Source: a virus
Direction: 5' to 3' (one strand)
Length of the DNA: 31,923 nucleotides
IMG/VR virus record: IMGVR_UViG_3300046787_000230
Location: 1-31,923 of that record
In this document: in pieces, positions 2 to 28,405 of the stretch
Layout of the letters: every line of letters starts with the position of its first letter
Position numbering within the stretch: the first letter of the stretch is position 1
Position numbers and translations under genes: made by a program
The notes under the pieces: model-generated
Database searches by the model: none
What the model was told of the DNA's origin: nothing
Seen by the model: the letters and a program-made list of their open reading frames with translations, nothing else

Positions 2-3000
2 CCAATTGGACCAGCTGGCATGATTGCCTTGGGCAAAACTGGCATGGCTGCTGGAACAACCGCCATTGAGCTTGGCTCCGAAGTGCGCGATATGGTTGGC
101 AAGGTATTGGCCGAACGCAAGCTTGCGCCAACGGCCGCCAACATTAAATCAATATTGGACGAAGACGGATTCCGCGAGGAGGCCGCAAAGCAGGGCGCCA
201 TCAAAGGCTTGACGGTTGCTGCCGTTGACAACATTTTTCTTGGTATCGGCGGCAAGGTTGCCACGGCCCCAGCGAAGACTGCTTTGGGTAGGGCTGCAGC
301 AGGCGGGTCGGCTGTCGTAGTTGACGCCGCTGGTGAATCATTGGGCGAAGGTCTTAGCCAACAGTTTGCTCGCGGCACGGTTGATTATGGCGAGGCTCTT
401 CGAGAGGGAACGTCAAGCATTGGTCAGTCTGTAGCCCAGACTGCTGCGGGTTCTGCGATTGAGAGGGCGCAGGGGATTAGCACGGCGTTTGAGCCGTCAA
501 TTCAGCCTGCCGCACCCGAGGTATCAACCGCCGAGCAAATGGCCCGCGATCGCGGTTTCCTGACGCCTCAGCGCCCAGTTACCCAGCTCACCAACTTCAC
601 CCCAGCCGACAGCCCCACAAAGGCCGCAGGTTTGGTTGACGTTGTTGTGCCAGTTCCAGTTGCAACCCCTGCCGTCACGCCATTGGCTGAGGTTCAGATC
701 AATCCCGAGACTGAGCAGCAGTTCGGCCTCGACAAGCTACGACTGGGGACAACCAATGTCGGCGTACCAAGCACTGTTGGAACCACGGATGTACCTAGCG
801 GTGCAGGCGCAAGCGTTGAGCTTAGCGGAGGCGTGGGCACTGCAGGACCTAGCATCACTGGCCCAGAAGGGGGAGTGGCTGCCGCTACCACCGCAGCTCA
901 ATTCGGCGGTGGACAGGTTGCTGCTGTTGGAGCGGCCAACGGCCAACAGCCTACCGCTCTAAAGCAGGAGTGGTACGGCCGCCGTGGCGACGGCTACCTC
1001 ACAAAGCCAGACGCCGAGCAAGCTTTGCCCGGTCGTCAACGCATGTTCCCCGACCTTCAATGGACGGTCGAACCATTACCCACTGGCAAGTTCCGTCTTG
1101 CTGGCTATCAAACCGCAACCCCACAGGAGACAACCCTTGGCACTCAAACCACTCAAGCCATCCAAGCAGCGCAAGAAGGACAGCAAGCACCTACCCTTGG
1201 AACCGCAGTCGCCCCAACAACAGGCGCCGTTGCGCCCGATGTGCAAGGTGCTCAACCTACCGAGCTGAAGCTGGCGCCTGCCGCATCGATGCGCGTCATC
1301 AGCTCAGTTCGCAAAGAGCTGATCAAGGACAACGTCGAGATTTCCGCAGTGCCACAGGCTGAGATGAACGAGTCTCACAAGGTGGCCAGTGCCGTGGCCA
1401 AGCTGTTGGGCAAGACGCTCACCGTCATGCGCTACGAGTCAGGCAATCAGTCGGCCATGCCAAATGGTTTGATCGATCGCCTTGGTGGTGACAACATTTT
1501 TGTTGCCGACGACACTGAAGATTCGCCGCTGTTTGTGGTGATGCACGAGGCTCACCACGGTCTGCCGCAAGAGACTCGCGCCAAGCTGAATGCTGCGCTC
1601 AACTCTTTGTTCAAAGAAGAGATGCGTGGTGAGTTTGCTCGCGAGTTCAACTACACAGAAGACAAGCTCGATGAAGAGATCCCAGCCTTCATGGTGCAGG
1701 CGATCTCAAAGCGCGCTGACTTTTGGGAGCAGTTGCGCACAAAGATGGGCAACAAAGATTTTGCCGAGGTGGCGAAGCAGATCTTGGCCAAGCTCAATGA
1801 CATCCTCACTGGTGCACGCAAAGAGTACGGCAATGACTTCGTCACCAAGTACATCAAAGACGTGGAGAAGGCGCGCGACTTGTTGACCACAGCTTACGCT
1901 GAGGCAATCAACGAGAAGGCCACCACCACTGAGACGAAGAAGGTTGCGCCAACAGTTGGTCCAATCGCAAAAGAAGAGGCCGTCATCGATGGCGTCATGT
2001 ACTCTGCGCGCTCGCGTGACTTGGTGAAGCTGCCAACGATTGAGATCAAGGACTTGGTAGGCAAGCGAGTCATGGGTATTAAGGCTGACTTGACCGATGC
2101 TGGCGTGAGCTACACGGGCATCGACGGCAGCCAACTCGAGTTCCCAATCGAGATGATGGGTGGTCCAAACTTTGTGGCTCTACCTGAGAACATCAAGAGC
2201 AATGTGGTGTGGGCCGTGCGCGGTGGTGCAACGCTGACTAAGATCATGAACGTGGTCAACAACAGCGACTACATCATTGTGCACGCCATGAATGGCAACA
2301 GCCATTTGACAAACGCAACCATCTCTCAGGCTTACATTCAAACCGTTGAGGCGTACCTCAAAGACAAGCGCATCAGCGTTGAGAACTTGCGCGCGCTGGA
2401 CAAGATCGTTCGCTCGCCGGCAAACAAAAACTCACTGCCAGATTTCGTTGGCTTCGAGTCACCCAACATCATCGAGTACATCGATGGCTTGTCGTTTGAT
2501 CAGCGCGGCGCGTTGGCCAAGATCTTGGAAAAGAAAGAGGCGCAGATCCACGGTCTGCCAAACCTCGATCGCTTTCGTCGCGAGACCATCGATCAAGAGT
2601 ACGCAGGCTATCGTCAAGGCGACGCCATGTTGGTCATCGAGGTCGACAAAGAAAACCCCACCGTCAAGCTTGGCGAAGAGGGCACGAAGATGCACCCCTC
2701 CTACCCGCTTGGCCTTCGCGGCAAGGTGGTCGGCAAGCTCGCCAAGGGTATCAACTATGAGTTGATCTACCGCGACTACTTTGAAAACAAAGTCCCTACG
2801 CTTGGCAACAAAGAGGCTGGCGCATGGTACGCATTCGATCGCGTGCTCCCTGTGCAAGAGATCACGCCAGAGATCGCCGCATCCGTGTCAGAGGGTGGCT
2901 ACAAGGCGATCAAATCTGCGCGACAGGCCGAGGCTTCACTCGCCTTGGCTAACGACAATTGGCTGGTGTCTGGCAAGACCAAGGCCGAGGGCGGTGTGTC

Positions 3001-6000
3001 GGTGCAAGAGTTCGTCGACGCACTCGCCGCGAACGAAGGTGCTGCCGCTCTCACCATGTACACGCCTGACGAAGTCAAGGCAGGCATTAAGGACAAGTCC
3101 TTCAGCGTCTACCAACTTGGCAAGCAAGGTGGCGACAAGGGCATCCAAGTTTTCTTTGGCCTCAAGCGCGGCGCGCCTTGGTACAAGGACATGATCGACG
3201 GCGTCTCGGACAACGAGGTCGAGGTCGTGTCGGTGACCAACAACGAAGTTGGCGCGCAAGGTGTTGGGATTCCTGCTATCATCACAAAAGCTATACAAGA
3301 AGGTGCGACCATCTTGGATGCGTTCGCCGTCAAGAGCAAGCGTTTCCCTGATGGATTCTTGCCAGAGATGTATGGCCAATTCGGCTTCGAGAAGATCGGT
3401 TCAATTCCGTTCGACGCAAGCTACTACGACGCCAACCAAATGGCTGACCTGAAAAAGTTTTGGGCAGACGGTGGGTGGAAAGAATCCGATGGCTACCCAG
3501 ATGTGGTGGTCATGAAGTGGAAAGGTAATGATGATGAACGAGCAACGTCAATTGAAAGATATGTACGCGAGGGTGAGACAAGTGTTTCCGTTGGATCTGC
3601 TAGATTCAATGGCGCCCCAACAGCGGACGCTCACGGACAACGCAATCAATCGCGTGCTAAACAAGGACGGGGTCGAGGCGCTGACAGTGGACAGGTTGGA
3701 GGGGATCAAGGAGTTGGTAACGCAGCACCTGTGGTCCGACGCGCTTACGACAGCATCCAAGAACTCGCAAGCCTCAGCGATGGCGACATCCGAAATCTCG
3801 GACTCAACCCCGATGAAGTCGCCAAGCTCAAGCAATCCCTCGGCGGCATCCAATTCAGCAAGCGTGCAGGATCTCCAGAACCTATCGGAAGATCCAGCAT
3901 TGGGCGCGATCAGGGCGATGCAGTCAAGGTCGAAGGCGCCATCCACTACGGACGAAGCGCAGGGCTGAGCGTACTGTCTGGAACCAGCTTTGGTTCTGGC
4001 ATCAAGGGCGCGGAGCAAGCGCGCTTGTCTGGCGTTGGCGTTGACCCACGCATCAAGCGCCGCGTCTACTTCTACCTCCCAATGGAGGGCGGCATCCCTC
4101 AACCAGAGATTGGCTTGGGCACGAATGTCTACACCGCAAACCTAAGCAATCTGTATGACCCATCTCTTGGGACGCTGAAGCTTTCTACTGAACCTAACGC
4201 GTTCGAGTCTGGCGTTCTTGACGCTGGCTTCCGTGGCTACATCAATCGTTCCCAAGGCACGGCCGTGGTGCTCAACTCTGATGTGCCAGTCAAGGCTGTG
4301 GGCAAGTCGTCAGAGCAGACCATGGTGCAGCGCAAGCCGCAGATGGTTGCTCAAAAAATAAGCACACGTGTCGAGGGTCAAGAGCGAGTTCGCAAGCCAA
4401 CCAATGAAGAGATGATTGGCATCGTCAAGGCTCGCCCAGAGTTAGCCAAGGTGGCGCCTTCCTTCCGCTTGGAGTTTGGCTCTGCTCGAGTCAACTTCGA
4501 TGAGGCGGCTGCGGCTGACGAGGCGTTGGCCAAGGCAGGGTCGACGTTCCGATTCAATGAGGACACTGATGGCCAAGTCGAGGTGGACTTGCAGTTCAGT
4601 CGTCGCACGAAGCCAGCCCCAAAGAAGACGGTCATTGCGTACAAGCTGTTCCGCGTGGAGAAGGATCGACCAAGCGAGTTGTTCCCCTTGTTCGTCCCTG
4701 TGTGGGGCGACGATGGTCCACAGAAGTTCAGCGCCCGCGACCCACGTCGCCATGGCGAGGGCTTGCCAATTGGTGAGTGGTATGACGCAGAGGTGGGTGA
4801 GAACGCGCCGTCCACAAAGACTGGTAAGCCGCAGGTGAAGTCGAAGTTGGGCGGGCTGGCGTTCCGTCCGGGCTGGCACGCGGGCGATCTCCCCATCGCC
4901 ACCCACATCGGCTCCAAGTCAGACCCCTCATTGAACGCACCAGACCTCCGCTCATCCAATCAAGTGTGGGCTGAAGTCGAGATGCCCAACGACGTTGATT
5001 GGCAAACCGAAGCCGAGAAGCGTGGCATCAACGCCAAGGGTAAGTTCATTGCGAAAGAGGCGCACATCACTGACCAACTCCCAGAGGATGGCTTCTACCG
5101 CTACAAGACCAACTCCAACATGACTGGCAGTTGGCTGATTGGCGGCTCGATGAAAGTCAATCGCATCCTGTCTGACGAAGAGGTCAAGGCAATCAACGAC
5201 GCTGCTGGCACAGCAGACTTGCCACGCGGTGAGAAGTTCGACGCCAAGAAGTATGGCTTCGAGGGTGTCATGAAAAGCAATCGCTCTATCGGCGACGCCC
5301 TTCAAGAGCGCATCAATGCGGACATTGAGCAAGTCATTGGCGAGTACGAGAACCTCAAAGGCACAGACGACGGTCGCATCTTGGATACCGACATGGTGCG
5401 AGAGCTGTCGCCTGAGTACCGTGCTGATCGCTCACGTGCGGCCGAAGTTCACGAGGCTTCTAGCTTCTTGACGCAAGCAATGTTTGAAAGTCGAATTGCA
5501 AACAACGACGCTGGCATCGTTGCTTTTATGGCTGGCGGTGGCGGTGCTGGAAAGTCTACAGCCAACGAGTTGGTAGGCAACATGCTTAACAAAGCTCACA
5601 CCGTTTTAGATGGCACGCTGTCCAGCTACGACAAGGCCAAGCGTAATGTGGAGTCGGCGCTTAAAGCTGGCAACAAAGTGCGCATTGTCTATGTCTATCG
5701 AGAGCCTATTGAAGCTCTGCGTAACGGAGTGCTTACCCGCGCAGAGCGCATGGGTCGCACCGTTACCATTGACGCATTGGTCAAGGGTCACGCTGGCTCA
5801 AGCTCTGTTGTAAGAAAACTACAAGAAGAGTTCGGTGACAACCCAATGTTTAAGTTGATCGTGGTCGACAACTCACGTGGACAAGGTAATGCAAAGATTG
5901 CAAACCTGATAGACATCACACCTGTGATACAATCAGGACTGAAAGAGAGGTTACAAAATGCAACAGAAAGTGAATTTCAAGAAGGACGAATTGGGGAGGC

Positions 6001-6310
6001 CGTATATCGAGCCACAACCGCCTCGTATCCTGACGCCCGAGGAAGTGATCAAGCGGGACTTGGTGGCGAAGCAGTTCGACGAGGAGTTCAAGGCGGCGTT
6101 CAAAGACGGGTTGGATCTGAGCAACTACAACTCTCGTTGACCAAGTTGTTCACGGACCTTCGCGGTGCTCGCGGCCTGAAGCTTGCGCGCGTGCAGGAGC
6201 AGGTGGAAAATAACCCGCTCAGCGCGGCAATCAAAAACGTCGAAGAGAACTTCTACGACATCGTTGGCCAACTCGAAGAAGACGGCCTCATCAAAATCAA
6301 TTGCAAGTAA
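2..6310 (+). CDS. Giant phage polyvalent protein (partial at 5' edge): zincin, LPD, GNAT-like, ART-like and zeta-toxin-like domains
   Basis: The frame is open to the left edge, so the true start is probably upstream; residue 1 here is the ATG at 20. Visible segments are: an Ala/Gly-rich membrane-seeking region (1-150); Pro/Ala/Gly linkers (160-420); a zinc-metallopeptidase motif HEAHH (509-513) with a plausible third ligand at E552/E553; an LPD-type region (about 670-950); a GNAT-like fold (about 975-1170, ending in a 'PDVVVMKW' strand); a possible ADP-ribosyltransferase-like domain (about 1305-1430); a conserved domain rich in 'GWHAGDLPIATHIG'-type sequence (about 1530-1755); and a zeta-toxin-like kinase with P-loop AGGGGAGKST (1838-1847). 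Phage and plasmid polyvalent proteins are thought to be packaged and injected to act early against host defences. The last 120 residues run through another gene's frame, so the stop may have moved downstream. The ART-like and LPD labels are tentative; the zincin and zeta P-loop are firmer. Confidence 0.85.
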   Translation, partial: PIGPAGMIALGKTGMAAGTTAIELGSEVRDMVGKVLAERKLAPTAANIKSILDEDGFREEAAKQGAIKGLTVAAVDNIFLGIGGKVATAPAKTALGRAAAGGSAVVVDAAGESLGEGLSQQFARGTVDYGEALREGTSSIGQSVAQTAAGSAIERAQGISTAFEPSIQPAAPEVSTAEQMARDRGFLTPQRPVTQLTNFTPADSPTKAAGLVDVVVPVPVATPAVTPLAEVQINPETEQQFGLDKLRLGTTNVGVPSTVGTTDVPSGAGASVELSGGVGTAGPSITGPEGGVAAATTAAQFGGGQVAAVGAANGQQPTALKQEWYGRRGDGYLTKPDAEQALPGRQRMFPDLQWTVEPLPTGKFRLAGYQTATPQETTLGTQTTQAIQAAQEGQQAPTLGTAVAPTTGAVAPDVQGAQPTELKLAPAASMRVISSVRKELIKDNVEISAVPQAEMNESHKVASAVAKLLGKTLTVMRYESGNQSAMPNGLIDRLGGDNIFVADDTEDSPLFVVMHEAHHGLPQETRAKLNAALNSLFKEEMRGEFAREFNYTEDKLDEEIPAFMVQAISKRADFWEQLRTKMGNKDFAEVAKQILAKLNDILTGARKEYGNDFVTKYIKDVEKARDLLTTAYAEAINEKATTTETKKVAPTVGPIAKEEAVIDGVMYSARSRDLVKLPTIEIKDLVGKRVMGIKADLTDAGVSYTGIDGSQLEFPIEMMGGPNFVALPENIKSNVVWAVRGGATLTKIMNVVNNSDYIIVHAMNGNSHLTNATISQAYIQTVEAYLKDKRISVENLRALDKIVRSPANKNSLPDFVGFESPNIIEYIDGLSFDQRGALAKILEKKEAQIHGLPNLDRFRRETIDQEYAGYRQGDAMLVIEVDKENPTVKLGEEGTKMHPSYPLGLRGKVVGKLAKGINYELIYRDYFENKVPTLGNKEAGAWYAFDRVLPVQEITPEIAASVSEGGYKAIKSARQAEASLALANDNWLVSGKTKAEGGVSVQEFVDALAANEGAAALTMYTPDEVKAGIKDKSFSVYQLGKQGGDKGIQVFFGLKRGAPWYKDMIDGVSDNEVEVVSVTNNEVGAQGVGIPAIITKAIQEGATILDAFAVKSKRFPDGFLPEMYGQFGFEKIGSIPFDASYYDANQMADLKKFWADGGWKESDGYPDVVVMKWKGNDDERATSIERYVREGETSVSVGSARFNGAPTADAHGQRNQSRAKQGRGRGADSGQVGGDQGVGNAAPVVRRAYDSIQELASLSDGDIRNLGLNPDEVAKLKQSLGGIQFSKRAGSPEPIGRSSIGRDQGDAVKVEGAIHYGRSAGLSVLSGTSFGSGIKGAEQARLSGVGVDPRIKRRVYFYLPMEGGIPQPEIGLGTNVYTANLSNLYDPSLGTLKLSTEPNAFESGVLDAGFRGYINRSQGTAVVLNSDVPVKAVGKSSEQTMVQRKPQMVAQKISTRVEGQERVRKPTNEEMIGIVKARPELAKVAPSFRLEFGSARVNFDEAAAADEALAKAGSTFRFNEDTDGQVEVDLQFSRRTKPAPKKTVIAYKLFRVEKDRPSELFPLFVPVWGDDGPQKFSARDPRRHGEGLPIGEWYDAEVGENAPSTKTGKPQVKSKLGGLAFRPGWHAGDLPIATHIGSKSDPSLNAPDLRSSNQVWAEVEMPNDVDWQTEAEKRGINAKGKFIAKEAHITDQLPEDGFYRYKTNSNMTGSWLIGGSMKVNRILSDEEVKAINDAAGTADLPRGEKFDAKKYGFEGVMKSNRSIGDALQERINADIEQVIGEYENLKGTDDGRILDTDMVRELSPEYRADRSRAAEVHEASSFLTQAMFESRIANNDAGIVAFMAGGGGAGKSTANELVGNMLNKAHTVLDGTLSSYDKAKRNVESALKAGNKVRIVYVYREPIEALRNGVLTRAERMGRTVTIDALVKGHAGSSSVVRKLQEEFGDNPMFKLIVVDNSRGQGNAKIANLIDITPVIQSGLKERLQNATESEFQEGRIGEAVYRATTASYPDARGSDQAGLGGEAVRRGVQGGVQRRVGSEQLQLSLTKLFTDLRGARGLKLARVQEQVENNPLSAAIKNVEENFYDIVGQLEEDGLIKINCK
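3534..3968 (+). CDS. Overprinted ORF nested in the polyvalent gene, frame +1 relative to it
   Basis: The ORF could start at any of three successive ATGs (3528, 3531, 3534). AAAGG lies at a good distance from the third, giving 144 codons. The first 70 codons read as an ordinary helical protein (MNEQRQLKDMYARV...). By hand count about three quarters of their third positions are G or C, while in the long frame the same stretch has mostly A/T third positions and a low-complexity Gly/Arg/Gln protein. After about position 3740 the picture reverses: this frame becomes Ser/Ala/Pro-rich and the long frame looks natural again. It could be a real nested gene, or the trace of two compensating frameshifts in the polyvalent gene. 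Function unknown. Confidence 0.45.
   Translation: MNEQRQLKDMYARVRQVFPLDLLDSMAPQQRTLTDNAINRVLNKDGVEALTVDRLEGIKELVTQHLWSDALTTASKNSQASAMATSEISDSTPMKSPSSSNPSAASNSASVQDLQNLSEDPALGAIRAMQSRSKAPSTTDEAQG
5916..5933 (+). promoter_or_regulatory. Operator plus extended -10 promoter inside the polyvalent gene
   Basis: Perfect palindrome TCACA-CC-TGTGA (5916-5927) followed directly by TACAAT (5928-5933), so TGA-TACAAT forms an extended -10. The predicted RNA start is near 5940, just before the ribosome site and ATG of the nested gene at 5958. Five other copies of this module occur in the window. Confidence 0.65.
5958..6140 (+). CDS. Small overprinted gene (60 aa) within the polyvalent frame
   Basis: This gene encodes a 60-residue charged protein of unknown function (MQQKVNFKKDELGRPYI..., ending SNYNSR). 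AGAGAGG lies 7 bases before the ATG, and an operator-type promoter sits at 5916-5933. About three quarters of its third codon positions are G or C, as in neighbouring genes. In the polyvalent frame the same DNA gives a Gly/Arg-rich sequence, although the first part (GRIGEAVYRA) still looks like the tail seen after zeta-type domains. So the gene probably began as a normal overlap with the end of the polyvalent gene, which later lost its stop codon. The TGA overlaps a TTG that may start the next small protein. Confidence 0.65.
   Translation: MQQKVNFKKDELGRPYIEPQPPRILTPEEVIKRDLVAKQFDEEFKAAFKDGLDLSNYNSR
6137..6310 (+). CDS. Possible separate 57-aa protein with TTG start, same frame and stop as the polyvalent protein
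   Basis: The last 57 codons of the long frame (LTKLFTDLRGARGLKLARV..., ending GLIKINCK) read as a compact, self-contained protein unlike the Gly/Arg-rich stretch before them. A TTG at 6137 overlaps the TGA of the 60-aa gene as TTGA, an arrangement typical of coupled translation. No clear ribosome site of its own is seen. The segment may be made separately, as the C-terminus of the polyvalent protein, or both. Function unknown. Confidence 0.4.
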   Translation: MTKLFTDLRGARGLKLARVQEQVENNPLSAAIKNVEENFYDIVGQLEEDGLIKINCK

Positions 6311-6319
6311 GGAATCAAA

Positions 6320-6808
6320 ATGGCAACCCGTAACTTTCTCAAGCCAGAGACTCAAACTATTTTGGACAAGGCTGTGCATGCGGAGCTGTTCGCATCCAAC
6401 CTATACAAGCACCTATCGAATCACATGCAGCGCATGGGTTTCTTCGGTGCGCAAAAGTTCTTTGCTGGCGAGAGTGCTGATGAGCTGACTCACTACCAAC
6501 AGTTGGCTGACTACATGAACGATCGTGGCTCTGTTGCAAACATACCAATGATCGAAGCTATGCGCGACAAACCATCTGGCTTGATGGACGCTATCGAAGT
6601 TGCGTTCGACACTGAGGTCGAGCTGATGGAGAACTACTCCACTTGGTACGACGAGTGCAAGTGCGCGATCACAAAACAATTCCTCCTCCAATTCCTCGAG
6701 ACCCAACGCAAGAGCGTTGGTGAGTACGGCGATTTGCTCGCACGCCTCGAGTTGATTGGCGACGACAAGTGTGGCCTCATCATCATTGACCAAGAGTTGG
6801 GTGCCTGA
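6320..6808 (+). CDS. Phage-encoded ferritin-like protein
   Basis: A 162-residue four-helix ferritin, the usual length for bacterial non-haem ferritins (165 in E. coli FtnA). It aligns by eye with FtnA along its whole length: 'FLKPETQTILDKAVHAELFASNLY', then ADELTHYQQL and the closing 'GLIIIDQEL'. Ferroxidase ligands that appear kept are E22, E55, H58 and E99, with Q129 matching FtnA Q127. The later glutamates after Q127 in FtnA are not clearly kept, so the third iron site may be altered. The ATG follows the polyvalent stop by nine bases with AAGGAAT as ribosome site, and the stop overlaps the next gene. Family members oxidise and store iron as 24-mers. Here it lies between virion-protein genes, so a structural or packaged role is possible. 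Confidence 0.85.
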   Translation: MATRNFLKPETQTILDKAVHAELFASNLYKHLSNHMQRMGFFGAQKFFAGESADELTHYQQLADYMNDRGSVANIPMIEAMRDKPSGLMDAIEVAFDTEVELMENYSTWYDECKCAITKQFLLQFLETQRKSVGEYGDLLARLELIGDDKCGLIIIDQELGA

Positions 6809-9540
6809 TGAGCTGCACCTACAAGTTCAACACCAAGGACGGAGAGCAGACCATCGTCGGCATGGCCGAGATGAAGGCTTTCCTCGTGTTGAATGGTGTC
6901 GACTCCATCATTGGCAAGGTCGACATTCAGATGAGCAATCGCACGCTTGACTTGTCTGAAGATGCCAAGGCTCAGCAAGAATACTTGCAGCAGCGCGCAG
7001 AGGCTGCAGGCTACAAGACCATCGACGAGTTTGTGGACAACGACTACAACGGCTTCGTCGAGGCTGCTGCTGATTGGCGCTACGAACACCCAGCCGACAT
7101 GATGTTGGCCAAGCGCAAGGGTGGCGCGGCCGCACCTACGCCGCCCGCAAGCAAGGCCACCAATGGGTGGCTGTTGGCGCGTGACGAGTTGGGCAACTTT
7201 CGTTTCGGCGCTGGCGCTAAGGCGTATCGCGCTGTGTCCGATGTGGCCAACGTGGTGTTGGAGAAAATCAAACTCAAGCCCATCAGTCAAGACCTATCTC
7301 GCGCACTGCGCAAGATGAAGGTGGAGATCGAGCGCGCGCAAAACCTCACCGTCGAAGTGGCTGGCAAGATGAAAGATCTGTCGGACCAAGAGCGTCAAAT
7401 GATCAGCGACGTGATCGAGGGCGAACTCAAGCGTGGCTCCAAGCCACCTAAGCACATCCTCGAGTTGGCTGCATCCATGCAGTCGATCATGTCGGAGCAG
7501 TCAGCTGAGCTTGTACGCTTGGGCATGCTGAGTGAAGACGCCGCTGGTCGATGGGATGGCAAGTACCTACCACGCTTCTATGAGTCAAAGCTCAAAGACG
7601 AAACCAAGGCGTGGATGAAAGCCGTCAAAGGATTGTTTGGCCGCAAGAAAACTATGCAGGGTATCAGCGGCTCAAGCCTCAAGGCTCGCGGCATCTTCAG
7701 AAACGTGCCCGTCGCTGACAAGCAGGATTGGATTGACCAAGGGTGGGAAGTGCGCGACGATGATTTCGATGCGCAGAACGACACTGAGATCACCATGTGG
7801 CGTGACTACACACGCGATGAGCGTGACGACATGGGCGAGATCCGTGACGCCATGTTCCGCTTCGTGATGGGCTACAACAAGAGCCAACGCGACATCGCGC
7901 TCGGTCGACTGTACGAGAACCTAGCCAATACCGTGGCTGTCAAGCGCGAGCAAGAGGGCTACGTGCAGGTGCCCAACAGTACGATCGAAGGAACCAAGGC
8001 CAAGACCTATGGCAAGTTGGCCAACAAGTGGGTGCCCGCTGAAGTGATGGACCACCTCGTGGCATTTGACTCATCCATGCAGAGCGATCTGATGAAGATC
8101 TACCTCAAGGGTTTGAGCATGTGGAAAGAGGGCAAGACAGTTCTCAATCCAGTGTCACACGCCAACAACGTGTTGTCCAACCTGACCATGGCTCACTTCG
8201 CTGGCGTCTCATATTGGGATGCTGGCAAGTACATCGGTACGATCCGTGACTTGGTCAAGGGTCACCCCATGATCGAGGAGGCCAAAGGCGTTGGCTTGTT
8301 TGGCGGCACGTTCAATCGCGCCGACTTGCTCAACGATATGCCAGACCAACTTAAGGTGTTGGCCTCGGCCAGTGAGTCCAAGGCTGCCCAAGGTGTTGAT
8401 GCTGTGTGGAATGCTCTGTCGTTTTGGCTGCGCAAACCTGCAGGAAAAGCCTACGAGGCCGAGGATTTGTTCTTTCGATACCTGATATACCGTGAGGCTC
8501 GTCAGCGCGGCCTAGGCCCTGATGATGCGGTCGACTATGCGCAGAAGTACATCTTCACCTACGACGACTTGCCAAGCGGTGCGCGTAAGCTGCGCGACTA
8601 TGCGCTGCCGTTCTTCAGCTACACCTACAAGGTGGTCCCAACCCTAGCTCAAACTGCGCTCGAGCAGCCATGGCGCTATGCTGCCCCAGCCGCTGCGCTG
8701 TACACCGTCAACGCGATGATGTACGCCATGGCCGCAAGCCTTGGTGGTGGCGAGGATGAGGATTGGTGGGAGGTTGTGCGACGTTACGTAACGGACCCTG
8801 AGTTCCGTGAGCGTGCGCGCGAGTTGGAGAAGGACCAACGCAAGAGCTTGCCACCATGGATGAAGGGTGCGAGCGCGACGTTGGGCACGCCCAAGGCGAT
8901 ACGCTTGGGCATGGATGATGTGACCAATCTGCCGTTGTTCTTGGATGTGAGCCGAGTGTTCCCCGGCGGCGACCTGCTCGACGCCCACTCCAACGCTGGC
9001 GGCATCCCTCTCCTTCAGCCCCTCACCCCAAGCAGCCCAATCCTGAACATGGTCGGCGCCATGCTGTGGAACAAAGACCCCTTCTACGGCAAAGAGATCG
9101 TTGAAAAGAACGACACCAGCGCCGAGGCCGCAGCTAAGCGTGGCAAGTGGATGTGGCAACAGTTCACCCCTGCGGTGGCCATCGGCAACTACCATTGGGA
9201 TCGTGCCCTCAACGTGATCGCAAACCAAGTTGGCGAACCAGTGCTTGGCTACACAGGCGTGGGCAAGGACGGCCTACCAGTGCAGGCTAAGTACGCTATC
9301 GCACAGACGGTGGGCATCAAGATCAGGCCAGTCGACCTCGACTTGTCTGAGAAGTTTGAGGCAGCCGATCGTCGCAAGCTGATCCAAGGTTTGGAGGCTG
9401 AGGTCAAGCGAGTTAATAGGTTAGAGAACAAGGGTGCAATCACACCTGAGAACGCAGCCAAGGAACGAGACTTGCAAAAGCTGAAGATCCAACGATTGAA
9501 AGAGGGCCTCGACATCGAGGGTAATCCGAAGGACGAATAA
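6808..9540 (+). CDS. Large phage virion-associated polyvalent protein (LPD38-like)
   Basis: A 910-residue protein whose ATG overlaps the ferritin stop (TGATG). The first 130 residues are acidic and include an Ala/Pro linker; the middle is a long helical region (about 140-330). From about residue 430 it matches the phage LPD38-type region as I recall it: 'EGKTVLNPVSHANNVLSN', then 'FFRYLIYREARQRG' near 555. A hydrophobic part follows (about 600-650, 'ALPFFSYTYKVVPTLAQ' and an Ala/Met-rich helix) that could insert in a membrane. The last 60 residues are a charged helix. Such proteins lie near the end of morphogenesis clusters, and many are thought to be internal virion proteins ejected with the DNA. 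No enzyme motif was recognised. Confidence 0.75.
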   Translation: MSCTYKFNTKDGEQTIVGMAEMKAFLVLNGVDSIIGKVDIQMSNRTLDLSEDAKAQQEYLQQRAEAAGYKTIDEFVDNDYNGFVEAAADWRYEHPADMMLAKRKGGAAAPTPPASKATNGWLLARDELGNFRFGAGAKAYRAVSDVANVVLEKIKLKPISQDLSRALRKMKVEIERAQNLTVEVAGKMKDLSDQERQMISDVIEGELKRGSKPPKHILELAASMQSIMSEQSAELVRLGMLSEDAAGRWDGKYLPRFYESKLKDETKAWMKAVKGLFGRKKTMQGISGSSLKARGIFRNVPVADKQDWIDQGWEVRDDDFDAQNDTEITMWRDYTRDERDDMGEIRDAMFRFVMGYNKSQRDIALGRLYENLANTVAVKREQEGYVQVPNSTIEGTKAKTYGKLANKWVPAEVMDHLVAFDSSMQSDLMKIYLKGLSMWKEGKTVLNPVSHANNVLSNLTMAHFAGVSYWDAGKYIGTIRDLVKGHPMIEEAKGVGLFGGTFNRADLLNDMPDQLKVLASASESKAAQGVDAVWNALSFWLRKPAGKAYEAEDLFFRYLIYREARQRGLGPDDAVDYAQKYIFTYDDLPSGARKLRDYALPFFSYTYKVVPTLAQTALEQPWRYAAPAAALYTVNAMMYAMAASLGGGEDEDWWEVVRRYVTDPEFRERARELEKDQRKSLPPWMKGASATLGTPKAIRLGMDDVTNLPLFLDVSRVFPGGDLLDAHSNAGGIPLLQPLTPSSPILNMVGAMLWNKDPFYGKEIVEKNDTSAEAAAKRGKWMWQQFTPAVAIGNYHWDRALNVIANQVGEPVLGYTGVGKDGLPVQAKYAIAQTVGIKIRPVDLDLSEKFEAADRRKLIQGLEAEVKRVNRLENKGAITPENAAKERDLQKLKIQRLKEGLDIEGNPKDE

Positions 9541-17033: not shown

Positions 17034-17051
17034 ATTGTATCACAGGTGTGA
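17034..17051 (-). promoter_or_regulatory. Leftward operator plus extended -10 promoter
   Basis: On the minus strand TCACA-CC-TGTGA (17051-17040) is followed at once by TACAAT (17039-17034). This copy is identical to the 5916 site. It faces the recombination operon that starts at 16988. No good -35 is present, so it depends on the extended -10. Confidence 0.7.
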
Positions 17052-18052: not shown

Positions 18053-18070
18053 ATTGTATCACAGTTGTGA
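18053..18070 (-). promoter_or_regulatory. Leftward operator plus extended -10 promoter
   Basis: Minus strand: TCACA-AC-TGTGA (18070-18059) followed directly by TACAAT (18058-18053). It overlaps the last codons of the upstream small gene. GAATTATTTTTGCA lies 9 bases further upstream and is shared with the 18810 site. Confidence 0.7.
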
Positions 18071-18803: not shown

Positions 18804-18821
18804 AGTGTATCACAGTTGTGA
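18804..18821 (-). promoter_or_regulatory. Leftward operator plus extended -10 promoter
   Basis: Minus strand: TCACA-AC-TGTGA (18821-18810) followed directly by TACACT (18809-18804). The palindrome equals that at 18059. GAATTATTTTTGCA lies just upstream, as at 18079. Confidence 0.7.
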
Positions 18822-19333: not shown

Positions 19334-19560
19334 ACAACGTCAGTCAGTGTTGGCACTTGCGTTGACTTGGCGATGTGCGTAGTCAGTCGACGAATGCGAT
19401 CTTGGTTGTACTCGACCATGCGAGATGAGTAGTCTTTGGCGGTCTGCATTTGAAGCAACTCACGCTTGGCCTGCTCCAGCTCTGTGAGCGCCATCATCTC
19501 TGCACTGGGCATGCGGAACGATGCCTTGATGAACTCGATTGCTTTGTTGATGAATTTCAT
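19330..19560 (-). CDS. Small helical protein, probable coiled coil (76 aa)
   Basis: Begins MKFINKAIEFIKASFRMPSA and continues as one long charged helix ('ALTELEQAKRELLQMQTA', 'VEYNQDRIRRLTTHIAK'). AAAGGTAAAAA precedes the ATG, which overlaps the Nmad5-like gene's stop. No family recognised. Confidence 0.6.
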   Translation of the reverse strand: MKFINKAIEFIKASFRMPSAEMMALTELEQAKRELLQMQTAKDYSSRMVEYNQDRIRRLTTHIAKSTQVPTLTDVV

Positions 19561-20069
19561 TTTTTACCTTTCGCTGGCCAACCAGCTTTTGTGAAGTCTG
19601 CTACTACGTTTGTTACTGCGGGAAGAGTCCTTGCTGCTTTAGCCTCTTCCTCTGGTAAGTATGCCTTGAACTCTGGCAGTGCATCTTCAAGTTGCTTGCG
19701 TGTTGTGCAGGCATAAGCGACGCCGCGCAGTCGAGTCTCAAGCGTTGACATGTTTTCGTCTTGCTCTTTCTTTTTAACACTCAGCGCTTCAAGCTTGGCC
19801 CATGTCTTCTCATCTCGCTTAATCATGCCGTAACCTGTGGTCACCTTCATGTAGATGTTTCCTATGTGGCGAGGCATTTCAAGGCTGCTTGATTCGAACC
19901 ATCCAGATTCGCCAGCTTTGTCGTAGTCCATCGATGGAAAGTCTTTTGCAAACTTTGCCTTAACAAATTCTCGCGCAAGCTTTTGCGCCTGCTCTTCGTA
20001 ATCTTTTTTGGGCACGTCGTGCATTGCTGCACGAATGAATGCGTCGCGAATAAAGTTTGTGAGTCTCAT
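19557..20069 (-). CDS. Nmad5-like protein (putative nucleotide modification associated)
   Basis: A 170-residue protein: 'MRLTNFIRDAFIRAAMHDVP' at the start, 'YMKVTTGYGMI' in the middle, and 'CTTRKQLEDALPEFKAYLPE' then 'LPAVTNVVADFTKAGWPAKG' at the end. These blocks match the phage family that I recall as Nmad5, named for its occurrence with DNA-modification genes. It lies one gene away from an ABC/GNAT fusion of the kind tied to base modification. AAAGGAAAAACC precedes the ATG. The family name is from memory and no catalytic site is evident. Confidence 0.6.
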   Translation of the reverse strand: MRLTNFIRDAFIRAAMHDVPKKDYEEQAQKLAREFVKAKFAKDFPSMDYDKAGESGWFESSSLEMPRHIGNIYMKVTTGYGMIKRDEKTWAKLEALSVKKKEQDENMSTLETRLRGVAYACTTRKQLEDALPEFKAYLPEEEAKAARTLPAVTNVVADFTKAGWPAKGKK

Positions 20070-20090: not shown

Positions 20091-20363
20091 TTAAATTGGA
20101 CGCCCGACAACGCGGGAGATTAGTTGCAAAGCCTCTGACTGTGCTTGTTGGCGTTGGCCACACAGAGCGAGGGTAAATATGTGGTCAAGCTCTACGCCTG
20201 CAATGTGATCTTCAAAGTCGGCTGATCCTGTTGATGACCCACCGATAACAGAGAACCCTCTGTGTCGTAGGTACTCAACAATCTCGTCATCATCAAAATC
20301 GTCAAGCGATACGGTGAGGTGCTCGGTGTGAGTTGGGACTCTATAACTTGGCTTGTCTATCAT
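20091..20363 (-). CDS. Small acidic phage protein (90 aa)
   Basis: Starts MIDKPSYRVPTHTEHLTVSL and continues 'DDFDDDEIVEYLRHRGFSVI', a pattern I recall from short phage proteins. The C-terminal half is helical. GGAGAAAACAA precedes the ATG, which overlaps the stop of the ABC-GNAT gene. Because it is coupled between that gene and the Nmad5-like gene, it may belong to the same modification pathway. No catalytic motif. Confidence 0.65.
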   Translation of the reverse strand: MIDKPSYRVPTHTEHLTVSLDDFDDDEIVEYLRHRGFSVIGGSSTGSADFEDHIAGVELDHIFTLALCGQRQQAQSEALQLISRVVGRPI

Positions 20364-21415
20364 TTGTTTTCTCCAATAAATTCATGGCTGTAGCACAGAC
20401 GTTGCGCGTGGGCTAATCTGTAGTTGGTGTTGGTCCACTTCTTGTCGCTCTTCGAATCGCTTCGAATCTTTTGGTTCTTGCTCGTTGGCTTCCACAGTGG
20501 TGAGTTGTTGCGATACTCGCCCAAGCGTGATGATGATGACTTGCTAAAGTACCTACCCCCATCAGCCCTCACCATGGCCCCCATAGCGTCCGATATGCGA
20601 ACACCTAGACCTAACCCTTGGAACTCTGGCAGGACCACCGTGCGATGGCCTCTCCACGCGTTCTTGAGCGTACCGCTTGGTAGTGGGATTACGGCAGCAA
20701 ATCCAATTGCTGTTCCGTCCCACTCGACAACCCAACAGCGTGCAGAACGATTGATGTTTCCTGTGAGATAGTGATGCTTGCTGAATAGCGACCATGCCCC
20801 AACGGTAGTCGGTACGAGTTCCAACCTAATAGTCGGTCGCCTTTCCACCCCCCTTGTCGACAGCTTGCCGACAGTGGTATCGAACACCCAATCTGGTTGC
20901 AGCCATTCAACAATGTCGTAGTGGCAGGTGGCGAACACGATGCGCTGCAAGCCCTCCTTGCGAATGTGTCGAGCAGTAGCGTATGAGCATGACTTGGCGA
21001 CGTTGCGATCCACCACCGAAGTAAACTCATCGATCACTGCACCATCGACTAGGCGACGCGCAAGGTCGGCGCGAAACTTCTCACCAGTGGATAGCACTCG
21101 GTACGGCTTCACCCACACAGGCACAGAGTTCAAACCCACTGCACCTAGGCGAGCGATGGCCTCGTCAGAACTTGCAAAGTGCGAGCAGATCGATCGACTG
21201 TTGGACCAACACACGCCCTCCTCTTCGCCAAACTGTTTGAGCAGTGATGACTTACCAGATCCAGATGGACCAACGATCAAACCAATTTGAAAATCTTGTG
21301 GCGCATCTAGCGTAGGCACATCGAACGTGCTGAACCCATCGAACTCAAAATCAAATGAGCGTGCGCACTCAGCAGTGATGTCATCTAACTCGACCTGTGA
21401 CTTCAGTTGCGTCAT
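20360..21415 (-). CDS. ABC-type ATPase fused to a Mom-like GNAT acetyltransferase
   Basis: A 351-residue fusion. The N-terminal half is an ABC ATPase: Walker A GPSGSGKS (49-56), signature-like LSTGEK (108-113), Walker B VIDE (127-130) and H-loop ATCH (H165). The C-terminal half is a GNAT fold: FSKHHYLTG (HHY 214-216), strand 'GTAIGFAAVIPL', then 'RTVVLPEFQGLGLGVRI' with the acetyl-CoA loop QGLGLG (266-271). The HY pair and overall pattern recall Mom of phage Mu, which carbamoylmethylates adenine in DNA. ABC-GNAT fusions of this sort occur in phages. It probably acts in DNA modification or in sensing unmodified DNA; that is inference. Confidence 0.8.
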   Translation of the reverse strand: MTQLKSQVELDDITAECARSFDFEFDGFSTFDVPTLDAPQDFQIGLIVGPSGSGKSSLLKQFGEEEGVCWSNSRSICSHFASSDEAIARLGAVGLNSVPVWVKPYRVLSTGEKFRADLARRLVDGAVIDEFTSVVDRNVAKSCSYATARHIRKEGLQRIVFATCHYDIVEWLQPDWVFDTTVGKLSTRGVERRPTIRLELVPTTVGAWSLFSKHHYLTGNINRSARCWVVEWDGTAIGFAAVIPLPSGTLKNAWRGHRTVVLPEFQGLGLGVRISDAMGAMVRADGGRYFSKSSSSRLGEYRNNSPLWKPTSKNQKIRSDSKSDKKWTNTNYRLAHAQRLCYSHEFIGENK

Positions 21416-22873: not shown

Positions 22874-22891
22874 AGTGTATCACACTTGTGA
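22874..22891 (-). promoter_or_regulatory. Leftward operator plus extended -10 promoter
   Basis: Minus strand: TCACA-AG-TGTGA (22891-22880) followed directly by TACACT (22879-22874). It faces the 75-aa gene and lies just behind the stop of the gene at 22894. Confidence 0.7.
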
Positions 22892-28387: not shown

Positions 28388-28405
28388 TCACATCTGTTAT
28401 ACAAT
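28388..28405 (+). promoter_or_regulatory. Rightward operator plus -10 promoter (one mismatch)
   Basis: TCACA-TC-TGTTA (28388-28399, one mismatch to the palindrome) followed directly by TACAAT (28400-28405). It faces the 66-aa gene at 28444. The hairpin GCAACGC-aatttc-GCGTTGC (28409-28428) follows close to the predicted start. Confidence 0.65.

What the first reader, a model, noticed from the sequence alone, without database searches (positions are those of the whole stretch)
5916..6310. Promoter-driven nested gene inside the end of the giant polyvalent frame
A copy of the operator-promoter module sits in the coding region just before a 60-codon gene in another frame, with a good ribosome site and typical codon use. 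Its TGA overlaps a TTG from which the last 57 codons of the long frame read as an independent protein. The polyvalent gene seems to have lost its stop and run through an overprinted gene into the next one. This gives two new small proteins and a polyvalent protein with a foreign C-terminus.
Basis: partly seen in the sequence, partly recalled or inferred. Interest (0 to 1): 0.72.

Follow-up and report, generated by a model that had tools for sequence, protein, structure and literature searches.

The report
Antitoxin-like gene nested in phage toxin
Inside the end of a phage zeta-toxin gene, a second small gene is written in a shifted reading frame; relatives show it is real, conserved and tied to the toxin, and it most likely makes the antidote, so the poison and its likely cure are printed on the same stretch of DNA.

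Summary
The 60-codon ORF at 5958-6140 is real. It lies in the +1 frame across the end of a zeta-toxin kinase domain in a 2096-aa polyvalent protein. It has coding-like codon use where the long frame does not. In relatives its wobble positions take the substitutions, while the long frame's wobble positions take them before and after it. A +1 ORF of 40 aa or more starts at the zeta end in 66 of 68 non-redundant zeta loci (phages, plasmids, bacteria); the +2 frame has none. Where zeta ends its protein, the small ORF overlaps the stop codon; where another domain follows, it is wholly nested. Homology between relatives switches exactly at the small gene's stop codon, so zeta plus nested gene moves as a cassette. 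The zeta domain is of the gonococcal ng_zeta1 type. In related plasmid zetas the nested +1 ORF resembles ng_epsilon1, a tested antitoxin. Best reading: the nested gene is the zeta domain's antitoxin. Existence is near certain; function is inferred. The 57-aa stretch is better read as the polyvalent protein's C-terminal tail than as a gene. The stop loss, if any, is old: the window's whole 22-row clade is nested.

The parts
20..6310 (+). polyvalent protein gene, 2096 aa (long frame)
   Evidence: PHROG 30118 at aa 1536-1747, Pfam Zeta_toxin at aa 1857-1943
5438..6028 (+). zeta-toxin-type kinase domain (long frame), ng_zeta1 subtype, P-loop GGGGAGKST
   Evidence: Pfam PF06414 E 1.5e-11; AF2 residues 1-197 mostly above pLDDT 80-90; 6eph Z 19.3, rmsd 2.4 over 190 residues; profile hit to 6eph E 9.7e-15
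5916..5933 (+). putative promoter-operator: palindrome TCACACCTGTGA (5916-5927) joined to -10-like TACAAT (5928-5933)
   Evidence: kept in L020-L023 and L051; only promoter-like site found in 5400-6900, though not above chance there
5943..5950 (+). ribosome binding site AAGAGAGG of the nested gene
   Evidence: SD-like motif in 35 of 37 relatives vs 9% of control ATGs
5958..6140 (+). nested +1-frame gene, 60 aa: probable antitoxin / zeta partner
6029..6136 (+). overprinted linker of the polyvalent protein (long frame, passenger sequence)
   Evidence: substitution pattern reversed; AF2 pLDDT below 50 from residue 198 on; non-coding-like codon use
6137..6310 (+). C-terminal 57-codon tail of the polyvalent protein; exchangeable module that starts at the nested gene's stop
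   Evidence: 87-100% DNA identity to L051 after the stop vs 30-50% before it; long-frame codon pattern

Best explanation
The polyvalent gene carries a zeta-toxin kinase domain of the ng_zeta1 subtype near its C-terminus. A separate small gene starts inside the last codons of that domain, one base out of register, with its own ribosome site (and in this phage group probably its own regulated promoter), and makes a 60-aa protein with a likely disordered N-terminus and a short conserved C-terminal motif. It most likely acts as the antitoxin that keeps the zeta kinase inactive in the cell that makes it, as ng_epsilon1 does for ng_zeta1. In zetas that end a protein, the pair is an ordinary overlapping gene pair. 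When zeta is followed by other domains, the long frame reads through the antitoxin gene as a flexible linker. The toxin cannot then easily be copied or shuffled into another polyvalent gene without its antitoxin, and recombination breakpoints fall at the antitoxin's stop codon. Shown: the gene is under selection, linked to zeta, and the cassette boundary is at its stop. Inferred: neutralisation of zeta, promoter activity, the linker role.
For: Substitutions by long-frame codon position: zeta 249/196/603, 3' part of overlap 318/159/119, after overlap 60/46/203; ten near-independent pairs 81/61/196 vs 105/62/35, chi-square p about 1.6e-19. +1 ORF of 40 aa or more at the zeta end in 66 of 68 non-redundant loci, none in +2. 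SD 35/37 vs 9%. HMMs of the small proteins hit only zeta ends in all held loci, apart from the upstream ng_epsilon1 genes that were in the third HMM. Homology breaks at the nested stop: L033/L045 about 97% before, unrelated after; window/L051 30-50% before, 87-100% after. In nested loci none of 421 junctions able to make a long-frame stop has T, vs 137/838 elsewhere, and 66/160 in the separate-gene loci. Zeta matches ng_zeta1 best by profile and fold. ng_epsilon1, shown to neutralise ng_zeta1 in E. coli (PMC5923241), is matched above 5000 shuffles by an HMM of the nested +1 ORFs of related plasmid zetas; in Neisseria, where the antitoxin gene lies upstream, the +1 frame of zeta_1 is broken by stops.
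Against: No direct sequence similarity between the window's 60-aa protein and ng_epsilon1 (hhalign E 0.18); the link is by position, frame, size and zeta subtype. The resemblance of plasmid nested ORFs to ng_epsilon1 is short (about 20 bits). The AF2 chimera did not dock the C-terminal motif on zeta (pLDDT below 50). No expression or toxicity data. An open +1 frame alone is weak evidence in these GC-rich genes: 34% of control anchors and 70% of synonymous shuffles also keep one.
Confidence: 0.7

Rival explanations
1. The nested gene is real and zeta-linked but not an antitoxin: for example a chaperone, a virion-packaging adaptor or a secretion partner of the zeta domain.
For: No sequence similarity to any known family; a small downstream partner of a zeta-fold protein is known as binding partner and antitoxin, Arc1 of AvrRxo1.
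Against: Plasmid counterparts resemble the validated antitoxin ng_epsilon1, and the same arrangement occurs in chromosomal stand-alone zetas of Acidobacteria that are not part of a polyvalent protein.
Confidence: 0.2
2. The +1 ORF is only an open frame kept by chance and by the long frame's composition; a single protein is made.
For: Open +1 frames are common in these GC-rich genes; the first 20 codons are largely dictated by conserved zeta residues.
Against: Reversed substitution pattern in the 3' part, conserved ribosome sites, codon use, and stand-alone overlapping versions that extend past the zeta stop.
Confidence: 0.03
3. The +1 frame is reached by programmed frameshifting from the zeta frame, giving a zeta with an alternative C-terminus instead of a separate small protein.
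For: The +1 register is the same in every lineage examined.
Against: Conserved ATG and ribosome site at a fixed spacing; no shared slippery site was noticed, though none was searched for systematically; codon-pattern evidence for the nested frame begins inside the zeta domain.
Confidence: 0.04
4. The 57-aa tail is a third gene started at TTG by translational coupling, and the long frame is not a real product past the zeta domain.
For: TTGA stop/start overlap in the window and L020-L023.
Against: CTG in L051, no ribosome site, and in other relatives the long frame continues for hundreds of codons into other domains at the same point; long-frame stops are avoided throughout the overlap.
Confidence: 0.06

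Closest known systems
ng_epsilon1/ng_zeta1 toxin-antitoxin of N. gonorrhoeae plasmids (PDB 6EPG/6EPH/6EPI, PMC5923241)
   Same: Zeta kinase of the same subtype (colinear fold match, Z 19.3); small antitoxin of about 60 aa, extended rather than globular in the crystal.
   Different: There the antitoxin is a separate upstream gene; here the small gene is nested out of frame in the toxin domain, inside a phage polyvalent gene; no detectable sequence similarity for the window's own small protein.
AvrRxo1:Arc1 (PMC5491322, PMC4938570)
   Same: Zeta-fold kinase encoded first, small neutralising partner downstream.
   Different: Arc1 is 81-98 aa with a KExFD...YExxYY motif that is absent here; zeta fold match much more distant (Z 11-12, rmsd 4-5).
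Streptococcal epsilon/zeta and PezAT
   Same: Zeta-family kinase toxin with a protein antitoxin.
   Different: Epsilon is a three-helix bundle encoded upstream (general knowledge and PMC5923241); fold match here weaker (Z 11-12, rmsd about 5).
Zeta domains in polyvalent proteins (Iyer et al. 2017, PMC5512222)
   Same: Zeta-toxin-like kinase as one module of large phage or conjugative-element proteins.
   Different: No nested partner gene turned up in the passages found by the terms searched.

Membership tests
ng_zeta1-type zeta toxins | kinase domain sequence and fold of ng_zeta1, in its own order along the chain | tested here: met
   profile E 9.7e-15 to 6eph; colinear alignment 1-197 to 75-271, Z 19.3, rmsd 2.4
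ng_zeta1-type zeta toxins | P-loop lysine | tested here: met
   GGGGAGKST; K39 invariant in the 25-row alignment
ng_zeta1-type zeta toxins | C-terminal OB domain | tested here: inconclusive
   window tail is 57 aa, low-confidence helices; PMC5923241 reports the OB domain only in gonococcal zetas and one Eikenella homologue, so it does not define the subtype
ng_epsilon1 antitoxins | sequence similarity to ng_epsilon1 (window protein) | tested here: not met
   hhalign E 0.18
ng_epsilon1 antitoxins | sequence similarity to ng_epsilon1 (nested ORFs of related plasmid zetas) | tested here: met
   19.9 bits, best of 5000 shuffles 14.5
type II toxin-antitoxin module | toxin gene genetically linked to a small partner gene | tested here: met
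   66 of 68 non-redundant loci; small-protein HMMs hit only zeta ends
type II toxin-antitoxin module | small protein neutralises the toxin | not testable with these tools
   needs expression
canonical epsilon antitoxin | match to a known epsilon family, gene upstream of zeta | tested here: not met
   no credible Pfam, PHROG or NCBIfam match of the window protein (Pfam, PHROG) or ten relatives; gene lies inside the toxin gene
Arc1 | KExFD(x25-27)(Y/L)ExxYY motif | tested here: not met
   absent from the 60-aa sequence (motif)
polyvalent protein | large multidomain phage protein with conflict-related domains | tested here: met
   2096 aa with PHROG 30118 and zeta domains; same zeta fused to many different tails in relatives

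The most novel reading that the evidence does not exclude
A whole branch of zeta toxins in phages, plasmids and bacteria encodes its antitoxin in the +1 frame across the toxin's own C-terminus, so that toxin and antidote are physically inseparable and travel as one overprinted cassette through the domain shuffling of polyvalent proteins.
Probability: 0.62. Interest if true: 0.85.

Novelty: new variant of a known kind. Interest (0 to 1): 0.76.

Why it matters
Overlapping genes are usually argued about one case at a time. Here one out-of-frame pair recurs over dozens of zeta lineages and its codon-position signature is clear, so dual coding can be measured. If the small protein is the antitoxin, it answers how phages carry a zeta kinase inside a giant protein without harming the producing cell, adds an antitoxin family missing from annotation, and shows a way in which overprinting ties a toxin to its antidote during gene shuffling. 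It also means that many zeta genes in databases have a partner gene that annotation overlooked.

Tried and rejected
Blastn of the region and of L078 in the phage collection: no match. Small proteins against Pfam, PHROGs, NCBIfam and PDB: nothing credible; beta-lactamase hits of the Burkholderia ORF are weak and taken as chance. My first reading that ng_epsilon1 lies downstream of ng_zeta1 was wrong: it is upstream. Openness of the +1 frame as proof: rejected as too weak on its own. Stop-loss direction on the zeta tree: unresolved, 7 changes, long branches. Acidobacterial survey: such zetas in only 4 of 150 genomes. Direct homology of the window's small protein with ng_epsilon1: not found. Literature searches for a nested out-of-frame antitoxin gave nothing relevant in the held library. 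Searches were input errors.

Full report
WHAT IS THERE. The window is a 31.9-kb linear IMG/VR virus record. ORF 20-6310 encodes a 2096-aa polyvalent protein with a Pfam Zeta_toxin match at aa 1857-1943. At 5958 an ATG opens a 60-codon ORF in the +1 frame, ending at TGA 6138-6140. Before it stand AAAGAGAGG as ribosome site and TCACACCTGTGATACAAT at 5916-5933, a copy of an element found upstream of other genes of the phage.

IS IT A GENE? Codon use, scored against the window's own genes, is coding-like for the nested frame (+0.20, +0.33 bits per codon) and not for the long frame over the same bases (-0.24, -0.33), whereas the long frame is coding-like before (+0.19) and after (+0.39). In relatives, differences between pairs fall mainly on the long frame's third position in the zeta domain (249/196/603) and after the overlap (60/46/203), but on the long frame's first position, which is the nested frame's wobble position, in the 3' part of the overlap (318/159/119). 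Ten near-independent pairs give 81/61/196 against 105/62/35, p about 1.6e-19 (pairs share deeper ancestry, so the value is approximate). In the 5' part of the overlap both frames are constrained: there the nested N-terminus is written over the last conserved zeta helix.

HOW WIDESPREAD? A scan with a zeta alignment gave 80 viral loci; plasmid, phage and genome records added more. Reading the frames at the zeta end shows a +1 small ORF nearly everywhere: 66 of 68 non-redundant loci have one of 40 aa or more, none in the +2 frame. Caution: control positions inside zeta have such +1 ORFs in 34% of cases and synonymous shuffles in 70%, so openness alone proves little; the substitution pattern and the ribosome sites (35 of 37 against 9% of control ATGs) carry the argument. 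Where zeta ends its protein (for example L054, L073-L080, L092-L098, phage record MW202577, Acidobacterial chromosomes L107, L109, L111) the small ORF overlaps the zeta stop and continues past it, an ordinary overlapping gene pair. Where zeta is followed by another domain, the small ORF is wholly nested, as in the window. HMMs of the small proteins find nothing but zeta ends in the held loci. A Patescibacteria contig (L108) shows it too.

THE LONG FRAME IS ALSO USED. In 48 nested loci, 421 junctions could create a long-frame stop by a T at the wobble position of the small gene; none has T, against 137 of 838 other junctions, and against 66 of 160 in loci where zeta stops (nested loci are defined by an open frame, so this measures the extent of the avoidance and is not an independent test). 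AlphaFold gives the window zeta domain high confidence and the overprinted linker under 50.

CASSETTE BOUNDARY. Relatives switch from similar to unrelated sequence, or the reverse, at the small gene's stop codon: L033 and L045 are about 97% identical up to the TAA and unrelated after it; the window and L051 are 30-50% identical before the TGA and 87-100% after. So the unit that is shuffled among polyvalent genes is zeta plus nested gene. This also explains the 57-codon stretch: it is one of many alternative C-terminal tails, in frame with the long ORF. It has no ribosome site, and L051 has CTG at the supposed TTG start. I do not support it as a separate gene.

WHAT IT DOES. The zeta domain's closest solved relative is ng_zeta1 of N. 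gonorrhoeae, by profile (E 9.7e-15) and by fold (Z 19.3, rmsd 2.4 over 190 residues, colinear; streptococcal zetas and AvrRxo1 Z 11-12, rmsd 4-5). ng_zeta1 is neutralised in E. coli by ng_epsilon1, a small protein unrelated to classical epsilon that binds as an extended chain and covers the ATP site (PMC5923241). In Neisseria that gene lies upstream of zeta_1 and the +1 frame of zeta_1 is closed. In related zetas of Moraxella, Burkholderia, Pandoraea, Paraburkholderia and Sphingobium plasmids the +1 frame at the zeta end is open and encodes a protein resembling ng_epsilon1: an HMM of these ORFs ranks ng_epsilon1 (19.9 bits) above all 5000 shuffles (best 14.5). For the Pandoraea and Burkholderia loci the region read shows no gene just upstream on the same strand; for Moraxella and Sphingobium I did not test the upstream genes. 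The window's own small protein has no detectable similarity to ng_epsilon1. The antitoxin reading for the window therefore rests on zeta subtype, position, frame, size and strict linkage. An attempt to dock its conserved C-terminal motif in a single-chain model was uninformative.

PROMOTER. The palindrome plus TACAAT is exact in the window, L020-L023 and L051; in L051 the difference lies in the two central bases of the dyad, which alters a residue of the long frame but keeps the palindrome. L024 and L027 have near versions (TCACAAGCGTGATAAA, TCACGCCTGTGATAAA) and carry similar sites elsewhere in their genomes, whereas the L023 phage has one other near copy. There is no good -35 box; the one promoter-like match in the region is this site but is not above chance by scan alone. 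A regulated promoter is plausible, not shown.

HISTORY. On a zeta tree of 75 rows the window's 22-row clade is entirely nested; at least 7 switches between nested and separate states are needed, direction unresolved. So 'lost its stop' may be right in principle but is old here.

NOVELTY. Overlapping genes, zeta toxins and polyvalent proteins are all known. A probable antitoxin nested out of frame in the toxin domain, recurrent over dozens of lineages and moved as a cassette, I did not find in the held literature, which lacks most subscription journals.

Noticed in passing
17037-17051 (-), 18056-18070 (-), 18807-18821 (-), 22877-22891 (-), 28388-28402 (+): Further copies of the TCACANNTGTGATAC promoter-operator-like element, most with a ribosome site and ATG some tens of bases downstream: a probable phage regulon. 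The L024 phage (record G009) has five TCACAATTGTGATATA copies within about 4 kb.
   Followed up: partly
6320-6808 (+): Ferritin-like protein gene (Pfam Ferritin E 9.5e-19, PHROG 16594) directly after the polyvalent gene; its stop overlaps the start of a 910-aa ORF without any family match.
   Followed up: no
20360-21415 (-) and 19557-20069 (-): A 351-aa protein with weak ABC-ATPase and GNAT acetyltransferase matches (PHROG 11143), and a protein with an Nmad5 nucleotide-modification domain.
   Followed up: no
L017, L018, L122 (plasmid zetas): The nested +1 ORF lies in the linker before a tail that may correspond to the OB domain of ng_zeta1 (by eye only); the records list no gene there.
   Followed up: partly
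L048-L050: A different-looking +1 small protein (MEKYQNQYTV...) at the same place, suggesting that the nested partner has been replaced or has diverged beyond recognition in some zeta lineages.
   Followed up: no
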